This document shows positions 3,937 to 45,805 of a stretch of 64,000 nucleotides of DNA, piece by piece. The notes under the pieces are model-generated. The model worked only from the letters and a program-made list of their open reading frames with translations. It made no database searches and was not told the DNA's origin. Location: NCBI GenBank assembly GCA_029263125.1, contig JAJCYD010000005.1, forward strand, positions 39,720 to 103,719, written 5' to 3'. Positions within the stretch are counted from its first letter, which is position 1. Every line of letters begins with the position of its first letter. Position numbers and translations under genes: made by a program. This DNA is from Solirubrobacteraceae bacterium. Its GTDB lineage: Bacteria > Actinomycetota > Thermoleophilia > Solirubrobacterales > Solirubrobacteraceae.

Positions 3937-4959
3937 TCAGCGCTTGCGCGACGCGGAGCGGTAGCTCATCGTCGGCCGCGAGCCCGACGTCAGGACCCGC
4001 TGCAGCACGCGAAACGCCGAGCGGGTCTGACCGTGCACGTTGATCAGCCCCGAGTCCCACGTGGTGTCGCGCGAGCCCGCGTTCCAGTGGTAGACGTAGA
4101 CCGCCTTGATTCTCGGGTTTCGCGGCAGCACGCGATCGAAGATGAAGCGCGTCACCTCGCCCGCGTGGATCGAGCCCTCGGGAATCGTCGTCCTGCTGCC
4201 GTTGTCACGGCGGACGAGACCGCCGGTCTCGGTCAGCCAGATGTCGGCGCCGGGCAGCGCGCGCAGGACCTTGCGCAGGCGCGCCGTCTTGAAGCGGTTG
4301 GCTTCGATGTAGTTGTGCAGTCCCCAGCGCTTGGGCGTGAAGCCGAGCTGGCGGCGAAACGCCCTGATCCATTTCACGGCGTTAGGCGAGTCCAGCAGCT
4401 CGGGCGCGAGGATCGTGCAGCTGCGGCACTCCTTGCGCAGCTGGCGGTAGTAGGCGGCGACGAGCTGGGGGCGGTGACAGGTCGGCTCGCCGCAGTGGTT
4501 GGCCTCGTTCCAGGTCGCGAACGTCTTCACCCACGGGTAGCGCGCGCGCATGCGCCGGAACTCCCTGCGCAGCTCCGCGGGCTTGGGCAGCGAGCGGCGC
4601 TTGGTGCGCGAATGCCCGATCGACAGCAGCGGCGTGACACCGGCGGCGCGGGCGCCCGCAAGCCAGGCGTCGAGCTCGGCGACCTGCCAGGAGACCCGCA
4701 TCGCGTCCCAGCTGATCGCCAGCCGAGCATGGCGGACGCCCAGCTCGCCGAAGCGCTCGTCGGAGAACATGTCGGCCTTCTGGTCGCTGATCCCGATCCT
4801 GACGGTGCGCCGGAGCTTGGCCGCGGCCTGCGTCGACCTGGACGCGGCGGTCGCCGAAGAGGACCTCGGGATCGAGGCGCCGGCGCTCGCGGACGTCAGC
4901 GCGAGCGTGGCGAGCAGGACCAGCATGGCCGCGACGGCCAGACGTGCCACCGCGCCCAT
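3937..4959 (-). CDS. Secreted glycoside-hydrolase-like protein (clan GH-A type)
   Basis: I choose the ATG at 4959 because it overlaps the cupin stop in a TGATG junction; the ORF-track start at 5013 lies inside the cupin gene. The 340-residue product begins with a Sec-type signal (RLAVAAMLVLLATLAL). The mature part looks like a TIM-barrel glycosidase: FATWNEANH carries the Asn-Glu acid/base pair of clan GH-A, and WLTETGGL supplies a candidate nucleophile Glu after a late strand. The substrate cannot be read. It may act on surface polysaccharide, or be a degenerate relative. A second protein of this kind is at 45.9 kb. Confidence 0.75.
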   Translation of the reverse strand: MGAVARLAVAAMLVLLATLALTSASAGASIPRSSSATAASRSTQAAAKLRRTVRIGISDQKADMFSDERFGELGVRHARLAISWDAMRVSWQVAELDAWLAGARAAGVTPLLSIGHSRTKRRSLPKPAELRREFRRMRARYPWVKTFATWNEANHCGEPTCHRPQLVAAYYRQLRKECRSCTILAPELLDSPNAVKWIRAFRRQLGFTPKRWGLHNYIEANRFKTARLRKVLRALPGADIWLTETGGLVRRDNGSRTTIPEGSIHAGEVTRFIFDRVLPRNPRIKAVYVYHWNAGSRDTTWDSGLINVHGQTRSAFRVLQRVLTSGSRPTMSYRSASRKR

Positions 4960-41827: not shown

Positions 41828-42658
41828 CTACGTCGTGTTGGGCCGCAGGTCCGGCACGGGCTTGTGGCCGACGACCAGCAGGTAGGACCCTGGCACGCGG
41901 GTCTCGCCGTCGCCGGTGTCGAGCTCTTCGATCATCGCCCGCAGCTCGGCGCGCAGCTCGTCATAGCGGCCCTCGTCGAGGGCGGCCTTCGCCGCCAGTA
42001 GCGGCCCGAGCTTCTCCTCGTAGAAGTCCATCGTCGCATCGACGGACGCGAAGACGAAGTCGACGTTCAGCGGCTCGATCGCGAGCACGAGCTGGCCGCC
42101 CAGGCGCCTGCGCACGTGCCCGTGCGTGCCCCACTCCCACGGCGCGACGGCGCCCTCGGGCAGCGGTTCGCCATAGCTGCGAACGAGCGCGTTGATCCGC
42201 GCGGGGAAGCTCTCGGGACACCAGTTGGCCATCACGATCTCGCCGCCGTCGCGGCACACGCGGACGAGCTCGAGCGCCGCCGCGTCATGGTCGGCGGCGA
42301 ACGTCGTCCCGAACGCCGTAAGCACGCGATCGAAGCTCTCGTCCGCAAACGGCAGCGCCGTGGCGTCGCCCTGCACCCACTCGACCTGCACCCCGGCCTC
42401 CTCGGCGCGCCTGCGAGCGCCATCGAGCTGCGTTGGCGCGATGTCCAGGCCGACCACCTCTCCGCCGGCCTGCGCCGCCCGGACCGCGACGTTGCCGGTC
42501 CCGGTCGCGACGTCGAGCACCTTCATTCCGGCCTCGATGTGGGCCGCGCCCGCAACGACCGCCCCGACCTCCCAGATGAGCTCGGCGATCGCGTCGTAGT
42601 CGCCGACCGCGAACCCTCCCGGGTTCTCGGCGTCCCGATCTGTCTGCTTGCTGCTCAT
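41828..42658 (-). CDS. Class I SAM-dependent methyltransferase (UbiE/COQ5-like)
   Basis: 276 residues from the ATG at 42658. The SAM motifs are KVLDVATGTGNVAVRAA, VVGLDIAPTQLDGA, VEWVQGDATALPFADESFDRVLTAFG (motif II/III region) and GGEIVMANWCPES. The acceptor is not evident; family members act on quinones, lipids or small molecules. It follows the Rpf-like gene by 57 nt on the same strand. Confidence 0.9.
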   Translation of the reverse strand: MSSKQTDRDAENPGGFAVGDYDAIAELIWEVGAVVAGAAHIEAGMKVLDVATGTGNVAVRAAQAGGEVVGLDIAPTQLDGARRRAEEAGVQVEWVQGDATALPFADESFDRVLTAFGTTFAADHDAAALELVRVCRDGGEIVMANWCPESFPARINALVRSYGEPLPEGAVAPWEWGTHGHVRRRLGGQLVLAIEPLNVDFVFASVDATMDFYEEKLGPLLAAKAALDEGRYDELRAELRAMIEELDTGDGETRVPGSYLLVVGHKPVPDLRPNTT

Positions 42659-42715
42659 CTCGTCGCCCCCGTGGATTGTCCGGGGGCGCACCCTACCGAC
42701 GCGAGGCGGCGGCCA

Positions 42716-43375
42716 CTACGCGCAATTCGGCCACGGCTTCGTGCCGTCGCGCGCCAGCAGCGCGGCGGCGCGGCGATCCTGCTCCTCCTCCGACGCGCGC
42801 GACGGCGTGCCCTTACCGCCGATCGAGCGCCACGTGCTGCGCGAGAACTGGTACTTGCCGTGGTAGCGCCCATCTCGCGAGACGGCCTTCGGGTCGCCGT
42901 TGGACTCGCATCGCGCGATCGCCTCCAGGCGGGGATCCAGCGAGGCGCTGACGAAGCGCAGGCTCTCTGGATCGATGCCCATGGCCCGCAGCGTCTTCGA
43001 ACCCAGCAGGCCGTCGACCTTCAGATCGTTGCGTCGCTGGAAGCGGCGCAGCGCTCTGCGGGTCTTGCGACCGATGATGCCATCGGCCTTGAGGCCGAGC
43101 GTCGCCTGGACGGCGGAGATCGTCTCCTTGCTGAAGCCCTTGCCTGCCACGGCGCCGCCCGTTCCTCCTGCGAGCGCCGTCGCGCTGAGGATGAGCAGTC
43201 CGACGGCCACGGTCAGCGCCGAGCCGCGGCTGCGAAGTGCACGGCGGCGACGGCGGACGGCCAGCGCGCGGCGAGCGCGCGCTCCGCGCAGCGAGCGCCG
43301 GAAGGCGAGCTCACGGGCAGCATCGCTCTCGGGGACGGCGGCGTTCACCACCAGTTCGTCGTTGCTTGCGGACAT
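42716..43375 (-). CDS. Resuscitation-promoting-factor-like protein (peptidoglycan-binding + transglycosylase-like domains)
   Basis: 219 residues. A very basic cytosolic N-terminus (residues 1-52) precedes a membrane anchor (ALTVAVGLLILSATALAG). A PG_binding_1 domain follows (VQATLGLKADGIIGRKTRRALRRFQ), and then a C-terminal transglycosylase-like/Rpf domain (LEAIARCESNGDP, GKYQFSRSTW, DGTKPWPNCA) with the catalytic-type Glu in CESNG. Such enzymes cleave septal peptidoglycan. The 5' region carries a c-di-AMP riboswitch, tying it to cell-wall signalling. Confidence 0.92.
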   Translation of the reverse strand: MSASNDELVVNAAVPESDAARELAFRRSLRGARARRALAVRRRRRALRSRGSALTVAVGLLILSATALAGGTGGAVAGKGFSKETISAVQATLGLKADGIIGRKTRRALRRFQRRNDLKVDGLLGSKTLRAMGIDPESLRFVSASLDPRLEAIARCESNGDPKAVSRDGRYHGKYQFSRSTWRSIGGKGTPSRASEEEQDRRAAALLARDGTKPWPNCA

Positions 43376-43404
43376 GCAGGCGCTTCCTTCCGTTCGTTTC
43401 GGGC

Positions 43405-43575
43405 GCCTACGGGGTTAGCTGTCGGGCTCGCGCTGAAACGTGCGCTACACCGACCGCCCCGACGACATCGGGTGCGGTTGGCGATTCGCCCCAGGACCGA
43501 TCACGCTTCCGGCCTCCATGGGTCCCCCGTTCCCGGTCGCTCGGAGCGATCCGGGATTCGGCCTTATGTGAAGCA
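43405..43575 (-). ncRNA. c-di-AMP riboswitch (ydaO-yuaA type)
   Basis: On the minus strand the leader reads GCTTCACATAAGGCCGAATC, a GC hairpin, GGGAACGGGGGACCCA, TGGGGCGAATCGCC, an internal stem, and finally CCCGACAGCTAACCCCGTAG, the characteristic 3' core of ydaO RNAs. Order and spacing fit the class, which turns off genes of osmolyte transport and cell-wall hydrolysis when c-di-AMP binds. A TACTAT -10 box at 43582-43587 would start the RNA near 43575, right at the riboswitch. The Rpf-like start codon is 30 nt past its 3' end. Confidence 0.92.
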
Positions 43576-43581
43576 GCGGGG

Positions 43582-43587
43582 ATAGTA
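43582..43587 (-). promoter_or_regulatory. -10 box of the Rpf-like gene and its riboswitch
   Basis: TACTAT on the minus strand lies 7 nt before the first riboswitch bases. I see no good -35 hexamer at 16-18 nt upstream. This is a leadered transcript, unlike most in the window. Confidence 0.5.
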
Positions 43588-43655
43588 GCCGCTGCGCGGA
43601 TGACACGCGCTGCCGATCGTTCGCAACGTGCGGGAAAAACGTGCTCGACCAGCGC

Positions 43656-45023
43656 CTACATTGGCCCCGGCAACAGATGCGGCGCCAGGTTTCGCAGGGC
43701 CGGATCCAACGTTCCGGGCGCCCCGAGGGCCGTGTGCAGGCCCGCGCGATGACCGGCCGCGCGCTCGCGGCCGTAGGGCTCGGCGAGGTTCTGGCTGACG
43801 AGAAACGCCCAGTCGCTGGACTGCAGCGCGAGCAGCTCGCGCACGGCCCGCGAATCGGCACGAGCACCGGCGGCGAGCGTGCGAAGCTCGGCGTCGCGGG
43901 CGCTCCAGGCCATGCCGGTGACCGGCGGCGCGCTCCACGTCGTCAGGTCGCGCGGCGTCCCCCACGAGCTGACGGGCAGGTGCGCAGGCGCCGGAGCGGG
44001 TTCGTGACGCGTCACGGCGTCGTCCAGCGGCGCAAGCGCCAGCCCCTGGCGACCCGCCTCCTCGATGACGGCCGCGAGCCACAGCGGCCCCTCGTGCCAC
44101 CAGTCGCCCAGCAACTCGGTGTCCACCGCGCACACCGCGAGCCCGCCGCCCGCCACGCGCGCGCGGGTCCGCGTCACGAAATCCGCGGCATCGCGCCGCG
44201 CGGCCGCGGCGGCGCGAGCCGGGTCATACGGCGCGCCGTCGTTGGCCCAGGCTCTGTGGCGATGGGCGGTGAAGGCGTGATAGTCGCGGTAGGCGGCGCC
44301 GGCGGGATAGCCGCCGCGACTCCAGACGAGGTCGATGGTCGCGCGGTCGATCGGCACGAGCAGCGGCCCCGCCCCGCAGCGCAGGGGGCGCAGGTGCTCG
44401 TCGGGATTCAGGACGTCGGACACATCGACGCAGACCGCACGCACGCCGGCGTCGGCAAGGTGGCCGTCCAGCCACGGCGCGTACGCGCACTCCGGCAGCC
44501 ACAGCCCGCCGTCCCACGCGCCGAAGCGCCGGCGGTGCGCGTCGATGCCGGCTCGCAGCTGCAGGCGCACGCCCGCGTCGGTGGCCAGCAGCGGCAGCAC
44601 CGCGTGCGTCGCGGCGGACGTCCACGTGACATGCCTGCCGAGCGCCCCGAGCATGCCGCCGTCGATCGCCGCCAGCCGGTCGCGCGCGTGCTCGTAGACC
44701 GCGGCGGAGTGGCGCAGGGCCGCGACGACACCCGGATCGTCGGCCGACGCGATATCTCTGCGGTGGGTCTCCGTCCGCAGCTCGGAGAGGAACGCCGCAC
44801 AGCGATCCATCGCTCCGTGCGCCTCGAGCTGATCGCAGAGCACCGGCGTCAGCGAGAGCGTGACCGGCGCGCCGCGGTCGAGGATCTCCAGCAGCGGCAG
44901 GTACGACGTCGCGATCGCCTCCCACAGCCACTCCTCGCCGAACGGCCATGTCCCGAAGCCCTCGACGTAGGGCATGTGGCTGTGCAGGAGGATCGCCAGC
45001 TCGCCCTGCGCCCGACGGCTCAC
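43656..45023 (-). CDS. GH57 alpha-glucan branching enzyme-like protein (DUF1957)
   Basis: I choose the GTG at 45023, overlapping the methyltransferase stop as GTGA, which gives 455 residues; the ORF track starts 438 nt earlier in another gene. GH57 signatures: LAILLHSHMPYVEGFG (conserved HxHxP-type start), WLPECAYAPW with the probable nucleophile Glu, and VCAVDTELLGDWWHEG with the acid Asp and the DTEL motif. The C-terminal helical domain (LLALQSSDWAFLVS) is typical of branching enzymes. With the upstream methyltransferase it recalls the mycobacterial Rv3031/Rv3030 pair for methylglucose polysaccharide. Confidence 0.92.
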   Translation of the reverse strand: MSRRAQGELAILLHSHMPYVEGFGTWPFGEEWLWEAIATSYLPLLEILDRGAPVTLSLTPVLCDQLEAHGAMDRCAAFLSELRTETHRRDIASADDPGVVAALRHSAAVYEHARDRLAAIDGGMLGALGRHVTWTSAATHAVLPLLATDAGVRLQLRAGIDAHRRRFGAWDGGLWLPECAYAPWLDGHLADAGVRAVCVDVSDVLNPDEHLRPLRCGAGPLLVPIDRATIDLVWSRGGYPAGAAYRDYHAFTAHRHRAWANDGAPYDPARAAAAARRDAADFVTRTRARVAGGGLAVCAVDTELLGDWWHEGPLWLAAVIEEAGRQGLALAPLDDAVTRHEPAPAPAHLPVSSWGTPRDLTTWSAPPVTGMAWSARDAELRTLAAGARADSRAVRELLALQSSDWAFLVSQNLAEPYGRERAAGHRAGLHTALGAPGTLDPALRNLAPHLLPGPM

Positions 45024-45805
45024 GCGCGCAGGACGGCGACGAGGTCCAGGCAGCCGCCGAGTTCGCCGGCCGCGGCGCGGCGCAGCGCGAAGTCGCGCAC
45101 GTCGATCGCGGGCGTGAAGCGGTCGTAGAAGGGCTTGGTGAGGCCGAGGCGCCGGTGGACGGCGTCCCAGCCAAGGCGCAGCGCGCCGGCATGCAACGCG
45201 AGCTTGCGCGCGTGGAACAGGCCGTGCAAGTCGACGGATGGGAAGTGCGCGCGACAGAGCGCCGCGAACTCCTCGGGGCGGTACTCGTGAACATGCCACG
45301 GGTTGCCCGAGCGCTCGGCGCCCGGCGGGGCGAGCGTCAGGACGTTGGGCGTCGAGACGAACGCGACGCCGCCCGGCCCGACGAGCGCCTTGAATCGGTC
45401 GAGGATCTCGCCCGCGTTGCGAACGTGCTCGATCGTCTGCAGGAAGACGATCGCGTCGCACGGCTCGTCGAAGGTCTCCACGAGCGTGCGCTCGAAGCGC
45501 AGGCCGTCGTGCGAGTAGCGCAGCCGCGCGTGCTCGTGGGCCTCGGGATTGGCGTCGACCCCGACGACCGTGGCGGCGCCGCCACGGGCCAGCACGTCAG
45601 AGCCATAGCCCTCGCCGCACGCAAGGTCGGCGACGCGCAGCCCCGCGACGTGGCGAGCGATCCACTCGTAGACGACGAGGTGGCGCTGAAACCAGTAGTT
45701 CTCCTCGGGCACGTCGGGCAGCGTCCGCTCGCCCGTGAGCGCCAGCGGCGGCACCCCCGGCGGCTGGTCGCGCTGCTCGAAGAGCATGGGTGGCGCATCG
45801 GTCAC
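45020..45805 (-). CDS. Class I SAM-dependent methyltransferase coupled to GH57
   Basis: 261 residues from a GTG with a TAGGCT -10-like box 9 nt upstream. The SAM fold is shown by VADLACGEGYGSDVLAR, VVGVDANPEAHEHARLRY, VFLQTIEHVRNAGEIL and GGVAFVSTPNVLTLAPPGAE. Its tight coupling with a GH57 enzyme mirrors mycobacterial Rv3030, a methyltransferase of methylglucose lipopolysaccharide assembly. A sugar 6-O-methyl or similar acceptor is inference. Confidence 0.88.
   Translation of the reverse strand: MTDAPPMLFEQRDQPPGVPPLALTGERTLPDVPEENYWFQRHLVVYEWIARHVAGLRVADLACGEGYGSDVLARGGAATVVGVDANPEAHEHARLRYSHDGLRFERTLVETFDEPCDAIVFLQTIEHVRNAGEILDRFKALVGPGGVAFVSTPNVLTLAPPGAERSGNPWHVHEYRPEEFAALCRAHFPSVDLHGLFHARKLALHAGALRLGWDAVHRRLGLTKPFYDRFTPAIDVRDFALRRAAAGELGGCLDLVAVLRA

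What the first reader, a model, noticed from the sequence alone, without database searches (positions are those of the whole stretch)
43405..43587. c-di-AMP riboswitch controlling an Rpf-like peptidoglycan hydrolase
The leader matches the ydaO class in its 5' and 3' cores, with a -10 box exactly at its start. This is direct evidence for c-di-AMP signalling into cell-wall remodelling in this organism.
Basis: partly seen in the sequence, partly recalled or inferred. Interest (0 to 1): 0.5.

Follow-up and report, generated by a model that had tools for sequence, protein, structure and literature searches.

The report
c-di-AMP riboswitch before Rpf-like hydrolase gene
A known kind of RNA sensor for the bacterial signal c-di-AMP sits directly in front of a gene for a cell-wall-cutting enzyme in a Solirubrobacteraceae bacterium; this is ordinary for the phylum, but comparison of about 90 related leaders suggests that it works by hiding the ribosome landing site in or beside its own knot.

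Summary
Rfam's c-di-AMP (ydaO/yuaA, RF00379) model matches window 43573-43388, minus strand, at 64.7 bits (cut-off 38, E=1e-12), full length, with a -10-like TACTAT just upstream. The next gene (43375-42716, minus) codes for a 219-aa PG_binding_1 + Rpf-type transglycosylase protein. The same arrangement is kept before the Rpf orthologue in all five same-genus genomes that hold one and in most related families, with covarying helices. The genome holds eight such switches, seven before (probable) cell-wall hydrolases, plus DisA and a DHH-type phosphodiesterase. It is a new member of a known kind: such switches before rpf and other hydrolase genes are published for Streptomyces, Corynebacterium and Mycobacterium. 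What I add: the start codon lies 10-36 nt after P1 in nearly all leaders, no intrinsic terminator is seen, and an apical loop pairs with the tail that carries or abuts the Shine-Dalgarno (0 of 5000 permutations). The likely mechanism is translational OFF switching through the aptamer's own pseudoknot. Binding and regulation are inferred, not measured.

The parts
43583..43588 (-). -10-like hexamer TACTAT
   Evidence: Read; identical TACTAT in orthologous leaders L011-L014; TANNNT enriched there in 56 of 78 leaders vs 9.3 shuffled.
43388..43573 (-). c-di-AMP (ydaO/yuaA) riboswitch aptamer, RF00379
   Evidence: 64.7 bits, E=1e-12, full-length model match; helices covary in 23 Rpf-linked leaders, 0/500 shuffles reach it.
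43560..43562 (-). P1, 5' strand (GCC)
   Evidence: Rfam alignment; invariant in 23 Rpf-linked leaders.
43405..43407 (-). P1, 3' strand (GGC)
   Evidence: As above.
43435..43440 (-). Pseudoknot strand 1: apical loop CGUUUC of the last hairpin before the conserved GAGCCCGNCAGCUAACC core
   Evidence: Complementary to 43400-43395; loop-tail complementarity across leaders exceeds all 5000 permutations.
43395..43400 (-). Pseudoknot strand 2: tail GAAACG, 4 nt after P1
   Evidence: same loop-tail pairing readable in the crystallised T. tengcongensis ydaO RNA sequence quoted in PMC5393176.
43385..43391 (-). Shine-Dalgarno-like GGAAGGA, 3 nt after the pseudoknot strand
   Evidence: Best match to the anti-SD (score 15.5, spacer 9 nt).
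42716..43375 (-). Rpf-like peptidoglycan hydrolase gene, 219 aa: N-terminal hydrophobic segment, PG_binding_1 (96-132), Transglycosylas/Rpf domain (147-218)
   Evidence: Pfam, NCBIfam RpfC-like below equivalog cut-off, PDB RpfC/RpfE/RpfB.

Best explanation
A ydaO-class c-di-AMP riboswitch controls an Rpf-like transglycosylase as an OFF switch at translation. Transcription starts at or a few bases before the aptamer. When c-di-AMP is high, the aptamer folds, P1 closes and the apical loop CGUUUC pairs with the tail GAAACG, building a compact knot that ends 3 nt before the Shine-Dalgarno and keeps the 30S subunit off; when it is low, the knot is loose and the hydrolase is made. In most paralogous and related leaders the tail strand is itself part of the Shine-Dalgarno (GAAAGAG). 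Shown here: aptamer homology, covariation, gene identity, linkage, absence of a terminator, pseudoknot complementarity. Inferred: ligand binding, direction of control, translational level, transcription start.
For: RF00379 match. Linkage to the Rpf orthologue kept in G001-G004, G006 and in most other families tested. Covariation: 96.5% of cells paired, 8 pairs changed on both sides, 0/500 shuffles. Start codon 10-36 nt after P1 in 87 of 89 leaders, median 23. Terminator-like site in 1 of 92 leaders of the order (that one in coding sequence), while the same scan finds clear ones in L110 and L126; none in window 42600-43800. Loop-tail pairing: mean score 15.5 vs 12.5 for all 92, z=12.5; 14.0 vs 9.8 for 21 Rpf-linked, z=8.6; 0 of 5000 permutations each; weak in a control stretch (z=1.9, 2.6). 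Pseudoknot strand overlaps the SD in 64 of 87 leaders; in Rpf leaders it mostly abuts it (median gap 0). One DAC protein with DisA linker in a radA-disA-carD locus and a DHH protein with a GGGGHRQAAGF C-terminus next to truB. Precedents: C. glutamicum nlpC is OFF at translation (PMC9960051); S. coelicolor rpfA is OFF (PMC10117811).
Against: In the window itself the pseudoknot strand does not overlap the SD; occlusion by a neighbouring knot is weaker logic than direct pairing, and in same-genus relatives the knot shrinks to 4 bp (CGUC/GACG) with the SD 2-6 nt further on. S. coelicolor rpfA was reported to act by transcription termination (PMC10117811). Folding without pseudoknots changes SD accessibility only modestly (unpaired 0.69 free, 0.40 with aptamer forced). 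Permutations do not correct for relatedness. No experiment.
Confidence: 0.72

Rival explanations
1. Same riboswitch and target, but the OFF decision is made in transcription: the bound aptamer makes RNA polymerase stop (intrinsic, non-canonical or Rho-dependent) before or early in the gene, as reported for S. coelicolor rpfA.
For: Published for S. coelicolor rpfA (PMC10117811) and B. subtilis; relatives with intrinsic terminators exist in the phylum (L110 in the same class, L126).
Against: No terminator-like site at the window or in 91 of 92 leaders of the order; only 29 nt between P1 and the start codon.
Confidence: 0.2
2. A ydaO-like aptamer that has drifted and no longer regulates (relic leader).
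For: Its score is the lowest of the eight in the genome, and same-genus orthologues score 42-52 bits.
Against: Core columns are invariant across Rpf-linked leaders, helices covary, and linkage is kept across families.
Confidence: 0.05
3. The leader is an ON switch (the bound aptamer frees the SD).
For: Nothing found here excludes it formally.
Against: The tail strand can pair in the crystallised ligand-bound RNA judged from its sequence (PMC5393176), and the tested homologues are OFF (PMC10117811, PMC9960051).
Confidence: 0.03

Closest known systems
S. coelicolor / S. venezuelae rpfA ydaO-like riboswitch (St-Onge 2015, 2017, as summarised in PMC10117811)
   Same: Same aptamer class, same target type (Rpf muralytic enzyme), one of several such switches before hydrolase genes in one genome (seven in S. 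coelicolor, six in S. venezuelae), OFF.
   Different: There, termination was reported; here the layout points to translation. Different class (Thermoleophilia); the window protein has PG_binding_1 plus a C-terminal Rpf domain.
C. glutamicum nlpC c-di-AMP riboswitch (PMC9960051)
   Same: No terminator, measured as a translational OFF switch; the authors suggested a CTCC-RBS pseudoknot.
   Different: Target is an NlpC/P60 peptidase; the pseudoknot idea was not tested by comparison there, here it is supported over 92 leaders.
M. tuberculosis rpfA 5' UTR ydaO homologue (cited in PMC6009663)
   Same: Predicted c-di-AMP aptamer before an rpf gene.
   Different: Not characterised in that paper; different class of the phylum.
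B. subtilis ydaO/kimA and T. tengcongensis ydaO (Nelson 2013; Ren and Patel 2014; RNA sequence in PMC5393176)
   Same: Same aptamer core and same loop-tail complementarity (CUCCUUC/GAAGGAG in T. tengcongensis).
   Different: B. subtilis kimA: transporter gene and transcription-terminator platform (per PMC9960051).

Membership tests
c-di-AMP riboswitch (ydaO/yuaA, RF00379) | Match to the covariance model above gathering score | tested here: met
   64.7 bits vs 38, E=1e-12, 1-134/134.
c-di-AMP riboswitch (ydaO/yuaA, RF00379) | Conserved helices supported by covariation in orthologous leaders | tested here: met
   96.5% paired, 8 pairs with changes on both sides, 0/500 shuffles; slid controls 38-50% paired.
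c-di-AMP riboswitch (ydaO/yuaA, RF00379) | Loop-tail pseudoknot | tested here: met
   CGUUUC/GAAACG; 0/5000 permutations in both sets.
c-di-AMP riboswitch (ydaO/yuaA, RF00379) | Selective binding of c-di-AMP | not testable with these tools
   Needs in-line probing or calorimetry.
c-di-AMP riboswitch (ydaO/yuaA, RF00379) | Host encodes c-di-AMP synthesis and breakdown | tested here: met
   DAC + DisA-linker protein; DHH protein of NrnA/PdeA type beside truB; enzyme activity inferred.
Rpf (resuscitation-promoting factor / PF06737) | Rpf/transglycosylase-like domain above cut-off | tested here: met
   PF06737 67.2 bits vs 27.
Rpf (resuscitation-promoting factor / PF06737) | Catalytic Glu in the CES motif | tested here: met
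   'ARCESNGDP' aligns to 'AQCESGGNW' of RpfC 2n5z/4ow1.
Rpf equivalogs RpfC / Rpf (NF046107, NF046106) | NCBIfam equivalog score | tested here: not met
   55.9 vs 200 and 42 vs 180 bits: Rpf-like domain, not an RpfC orthologue.
Transcription-terminating ydaO platform | Intrinsic terminator between aptamer and gene | tested here: not met
   None at the window; 1 of 92 leaders in the order, in coding sequence.
Translational c-di-AMP switch (C. glutamicum nlpC type) | SD immediately downstream of, or inside, the aptamer's 3' end | tested here: met
   SD 43391-43385, 3 nt after the pseudoknot strand; overlap in 64/87 leaders overall.
Translational c-di-AMP switch (C. glutamicum nlpC type) | c-di-AMP changes protein output but not mRNA level | not testable with these tools
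   Needs reporter and RNA measurements.

The most novel reading that the evidence does not exclude
Across the Solirubrobacterales, and many other Actinomycetota, the c-di-AMP aptamer needs no separate expression platform: the 3' strand of its own structural pseudoknot is, or abuts, the Shine-Dalgarno of a cell-wall hydrolase gene, so ligand binding and ribosome blocking are one and the same fold. Translation, not termination, would then be the default for this riboswitch class in the phylum, with several switches per genome forming one hydrolase regulon.
Probability: 0.5. Interest if true: 0.4.

Novelty: new member of a known kind. Interest (0 to 1): 0.25.

Why it matters
It extends the link between c-di-AMP and cell-wall hydrolases to Thermoleophilia, a class for which I found no paper on c-di-AMP signalling in the held library (two papers name both words, neither by title or abstract about it), and it offers a testable, comparison-backed answer to an open point: how Actinobacterial c-di-AMP riboswitches without terminators turn genes off. 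The reports for Streptomyces rpfA (termination) and Corynebacterium nlpC (translation) disagree; the pseudoknot-at-the-Shine-Dalgarno layout found here favours translation and gives simple mutants to test it.

Tried and rejected
Generic sigma-70 promoter and terminator scans found nothing at the site. A third switch near the tandem M23 genes on contig C43 was looked for and not found. An outer helix between the transcript's 5' end (GCUUC) and the end of the SD (GAAGC), predicted when the aptamer is forced, was dropped: relatives do not keep it with compensating changes. MAFFT columns could not hold the pseudoknot in register because loop and tail lengths vary, so I used a permutation test with free register instead of per-column covariation. 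A genome-contig scan with the Rpf protein gave only one relative, which named the family (Solirubrobacteraceae). Key papers (Nelson 2013, Ren and Patel 2014, Jones 2014, St-Onge 2017, Block 2010) are not held; I relied on papers that summarise them.

Full report
WHAT IS THERE. Rfam's c-di-AMP (ydaO/yuaA) model matches the minus strand at 43573-43388 with 64.7 bits (gathering 38), E=1e-12, over its full length; it is the only Rfam match of the window above threshold. The next gene on the same strand starts with ATG at 43375, 29 nt after P1, and codes for 219 aa: a basic N-terminus, one hydrophobic segment, PG_binding_1 and a C-terminal Rpf-type transglycosylase domain. The closest solved structures are mycobacterial RpfC and RpfE, and the CES motif with the catalytic Glu is kept. 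It is Rpf-like, not an RpfC orthologue by NCBIfam's cut-off.

MORE THAN CHANCE. Genomes of the same genus and family hold Rpf orthologues of about 50-59% identity, and cmscan finds the riboswitch immediately upstream of the orthologue in G001-G004, G006 and in most of the other genomes whose Rpf locus was fetched. On an alignment of 23 such leaders the model's helices are 96.5% paired, 8 pairs change on both sides, and none of 500 shuffles reaches these values; slid structures are 38-50% paired. A TANNNT box lies 12-34 nt before P1 in 56 of 78 leaders, against 9.3 (max 18) in shuffles, and the exact TACTAT recurs in same-genus orthologues. The one named relative is a Solirubrobacteraceae MAG (taxonomy), which places the window in Thermoleophilia, Actinomycetota.

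THE GENOME AROUND IT. The window's genome holds eight full-length c-di-AMP aptamers. The genes after them are: the window's Rpf-like enzyme; four M23 peptidases (L003, L004, L005, L007); two PG_binding_1 proteins with an NlpC/P60-like C-terminal half (L002, L006; this call rests on the YGGGH...DCSG pattern, a weak RipC match and weak Pfam matches of relatives, so it is tentative); and one small membrane protein without a Pfam domain (L001). Over 84 downstream proteins of the order, PG_binding_1 occurs in 49, Rpf-type transglycosylase in 22, M23 in 13, NlpC/P60 in 13 (weak), DPBB in 6. The genome also encodes one DAC protein with the DisA linker, in a radA-disA-carD locus, and a 334-aa DHH protein with a GGGGHRQAAGF C-terminus beside truB, resembling the NrnA/PdeA type. 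So the means to make and to break down c-di-AMP are present by homology. All 41 genomes of this genus, family and order have at least one such aptamer (1-12 each), against 22 of 120 in an even sample of the phylum.

HOW IT PROBABLY WORKS. Three facts point to translation. First, in 87 of 89 leaders the start codon lies 10-36 nt after P1, median 23, which leaves little room for a terminator. Second, a hairpin-plus-U-run scan finds a terminator-like site in only 1 of 92 leaders of the order (in coding sequence), while the same scan picks out clear ones after the aptamers of L110 (same class) and L126 (same phylum). Third, the apical loop of the last hairpin before the conserved core is complementary to the tail that follows P1 by a few nt, with many compensated variants: CGUUUC/GAAACG (window), CUCUUUC/GAAAGAG, GGUCC/GGACC, UCUUUG/CAAAGA, AUCUCUC/GAGAGAU, GCCUUUCUC/GAGAAAGGC. 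Re-pairing loops with other leaders' tails never reaches the observed mean in 5000 permutations (z=12.5 for 92 leaders; z=8.6 for the 21 Rpf-linked), whereas a control stretch gives z=1.9 and 2.6. The same pairing can be read in the sequence of the crystallised T. tengcongensis RNA (CUCCUUC/GAAGGAG; PMC5393176), whose structure is described there as containing a pseudoknot; that these are the same pairs is my reading of the sequence. In 64 of 87 leaders the tail strand overlaps the best Shine-Dalgarno match; in the Rpf group it mostly abuts it (7 of 21 overlap, median gap 0 nt; window gap 3 nt) (anti-SD assumed as ACCUCCUUUCU, not read from this genome). Folding of this RNA around c-di-AMP would therefore close the ribosome's landing site directly or from next door. 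OFF is the direction measured for relatives (PMC10117811, PMC9960051). Direction, ligand and level of control at this locus are inferences.

WHAT WEAKENS IT. The overlap of knot and Shine-Dalgarno is weakest in exactly the gene family of this finding, and in same-genus relatives the knot has only 4 pairs. Nested folding gives only a modest change of SD accessibility (0.69 to 0.40). The permutation test does not remove shared ancestry. S. coelicolor rpfA was reported to terminate transcription (PMC10117811).

COMPARISON WITH WHAT IS KNOWN. Riboswitches of this class before rpf and other hydrolase genes are well published in the phylum: seven in S. coelicolor, six in S. venezuelae, with c-di-AMP binding and repression shown for rpfA (PMC10117811); six in S. 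lividans, with a suggested block of the ribosome binding site citing Haiser 2009 and Block 2010 (PMC8079986); rpf1 and nlpC in C. glutamicum, the latter translational with a proposed CTCC-RBS pseudoknot (PMC9960051); a predicted one before M. tuberculosis rpfA (PMC6009663). The window is thus a new member of a known kind, in a class where I found no c-di-AMP study in the held library. The new part is comparative support for the pseudoknot-at-the-Shine-Dalgarno layout, also visible in other Actinomycetota sampled (L109, L112, L120, L123, L128, L130).

VERDICT. Observation confirmed; interpretation supported with one overstatement ('direct evidence'). Ordinary in kind; modest interest for the mechanism.

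Noticed in passing
L001:981-1490 (-), and L046, L050, L051, L059, L071, L076, L082, L092: The best-scoring c-di-AMP switch of the genome (85 bits) precedes a small single-TM protein with no Pfam/NCBIfam match (MAHxEARAWWADVxHLR ... TVEIRGR ... PDRxAxWAxxxGxxLILxAxxTADA). In L041, L047, L083 and L088 what looks like the same gene carries PG_binding_1 + DPBB (lytic transglycosylase-like; Pfam shown for L041 and L083), and an AhpD-like gene lies beyond in L083, L088 and L001: the hydrolase part seems lost while the riboswitch is kept.
   Followed up: partly
L101:5778-5927 and 4595-4744 (-) (G000 contig C43): Two c-di-AMP aptamers 1.2 kb apart, each before its own M23 peptidase gene (a tandem duplicate), lack both the loop-tail pseudoknot and a recognisable Shine-Dalgarno.
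   Followed up: no
window 43583-43603 (-): Upstream of Rpf-linked switches a motif CRTCCG-N9-TACTAT-like occurs in 9 of 23 leaders and 0 of 66 other switch leaders; possibly a regulator or alternative sigma factor site shared by the Rpf genes. Pattern chosen after inspection.
   Followed up: partly
L110 (same class), L126 (same phylum): These c-di-AMP aptamers are followed by clear intrinsic terminators, unlike those of Solirubrobacterales: the phylum holds both transcriptional and translational layouts.
   Followed up: partly
L028:1276-2635 (-) (G016 contig C8): Two adjacent Rpf-like genes, each with its own c-di-AMP aptamer, in a relative.
   Followed up: no
window 43656-45020 (-) and 45020-45805 (-): Upstream of the riboswitch lie a GH57-type branching-enzyme gene and a methyltransferase gene on the same strand; nothing unusual.
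   Followed up: no
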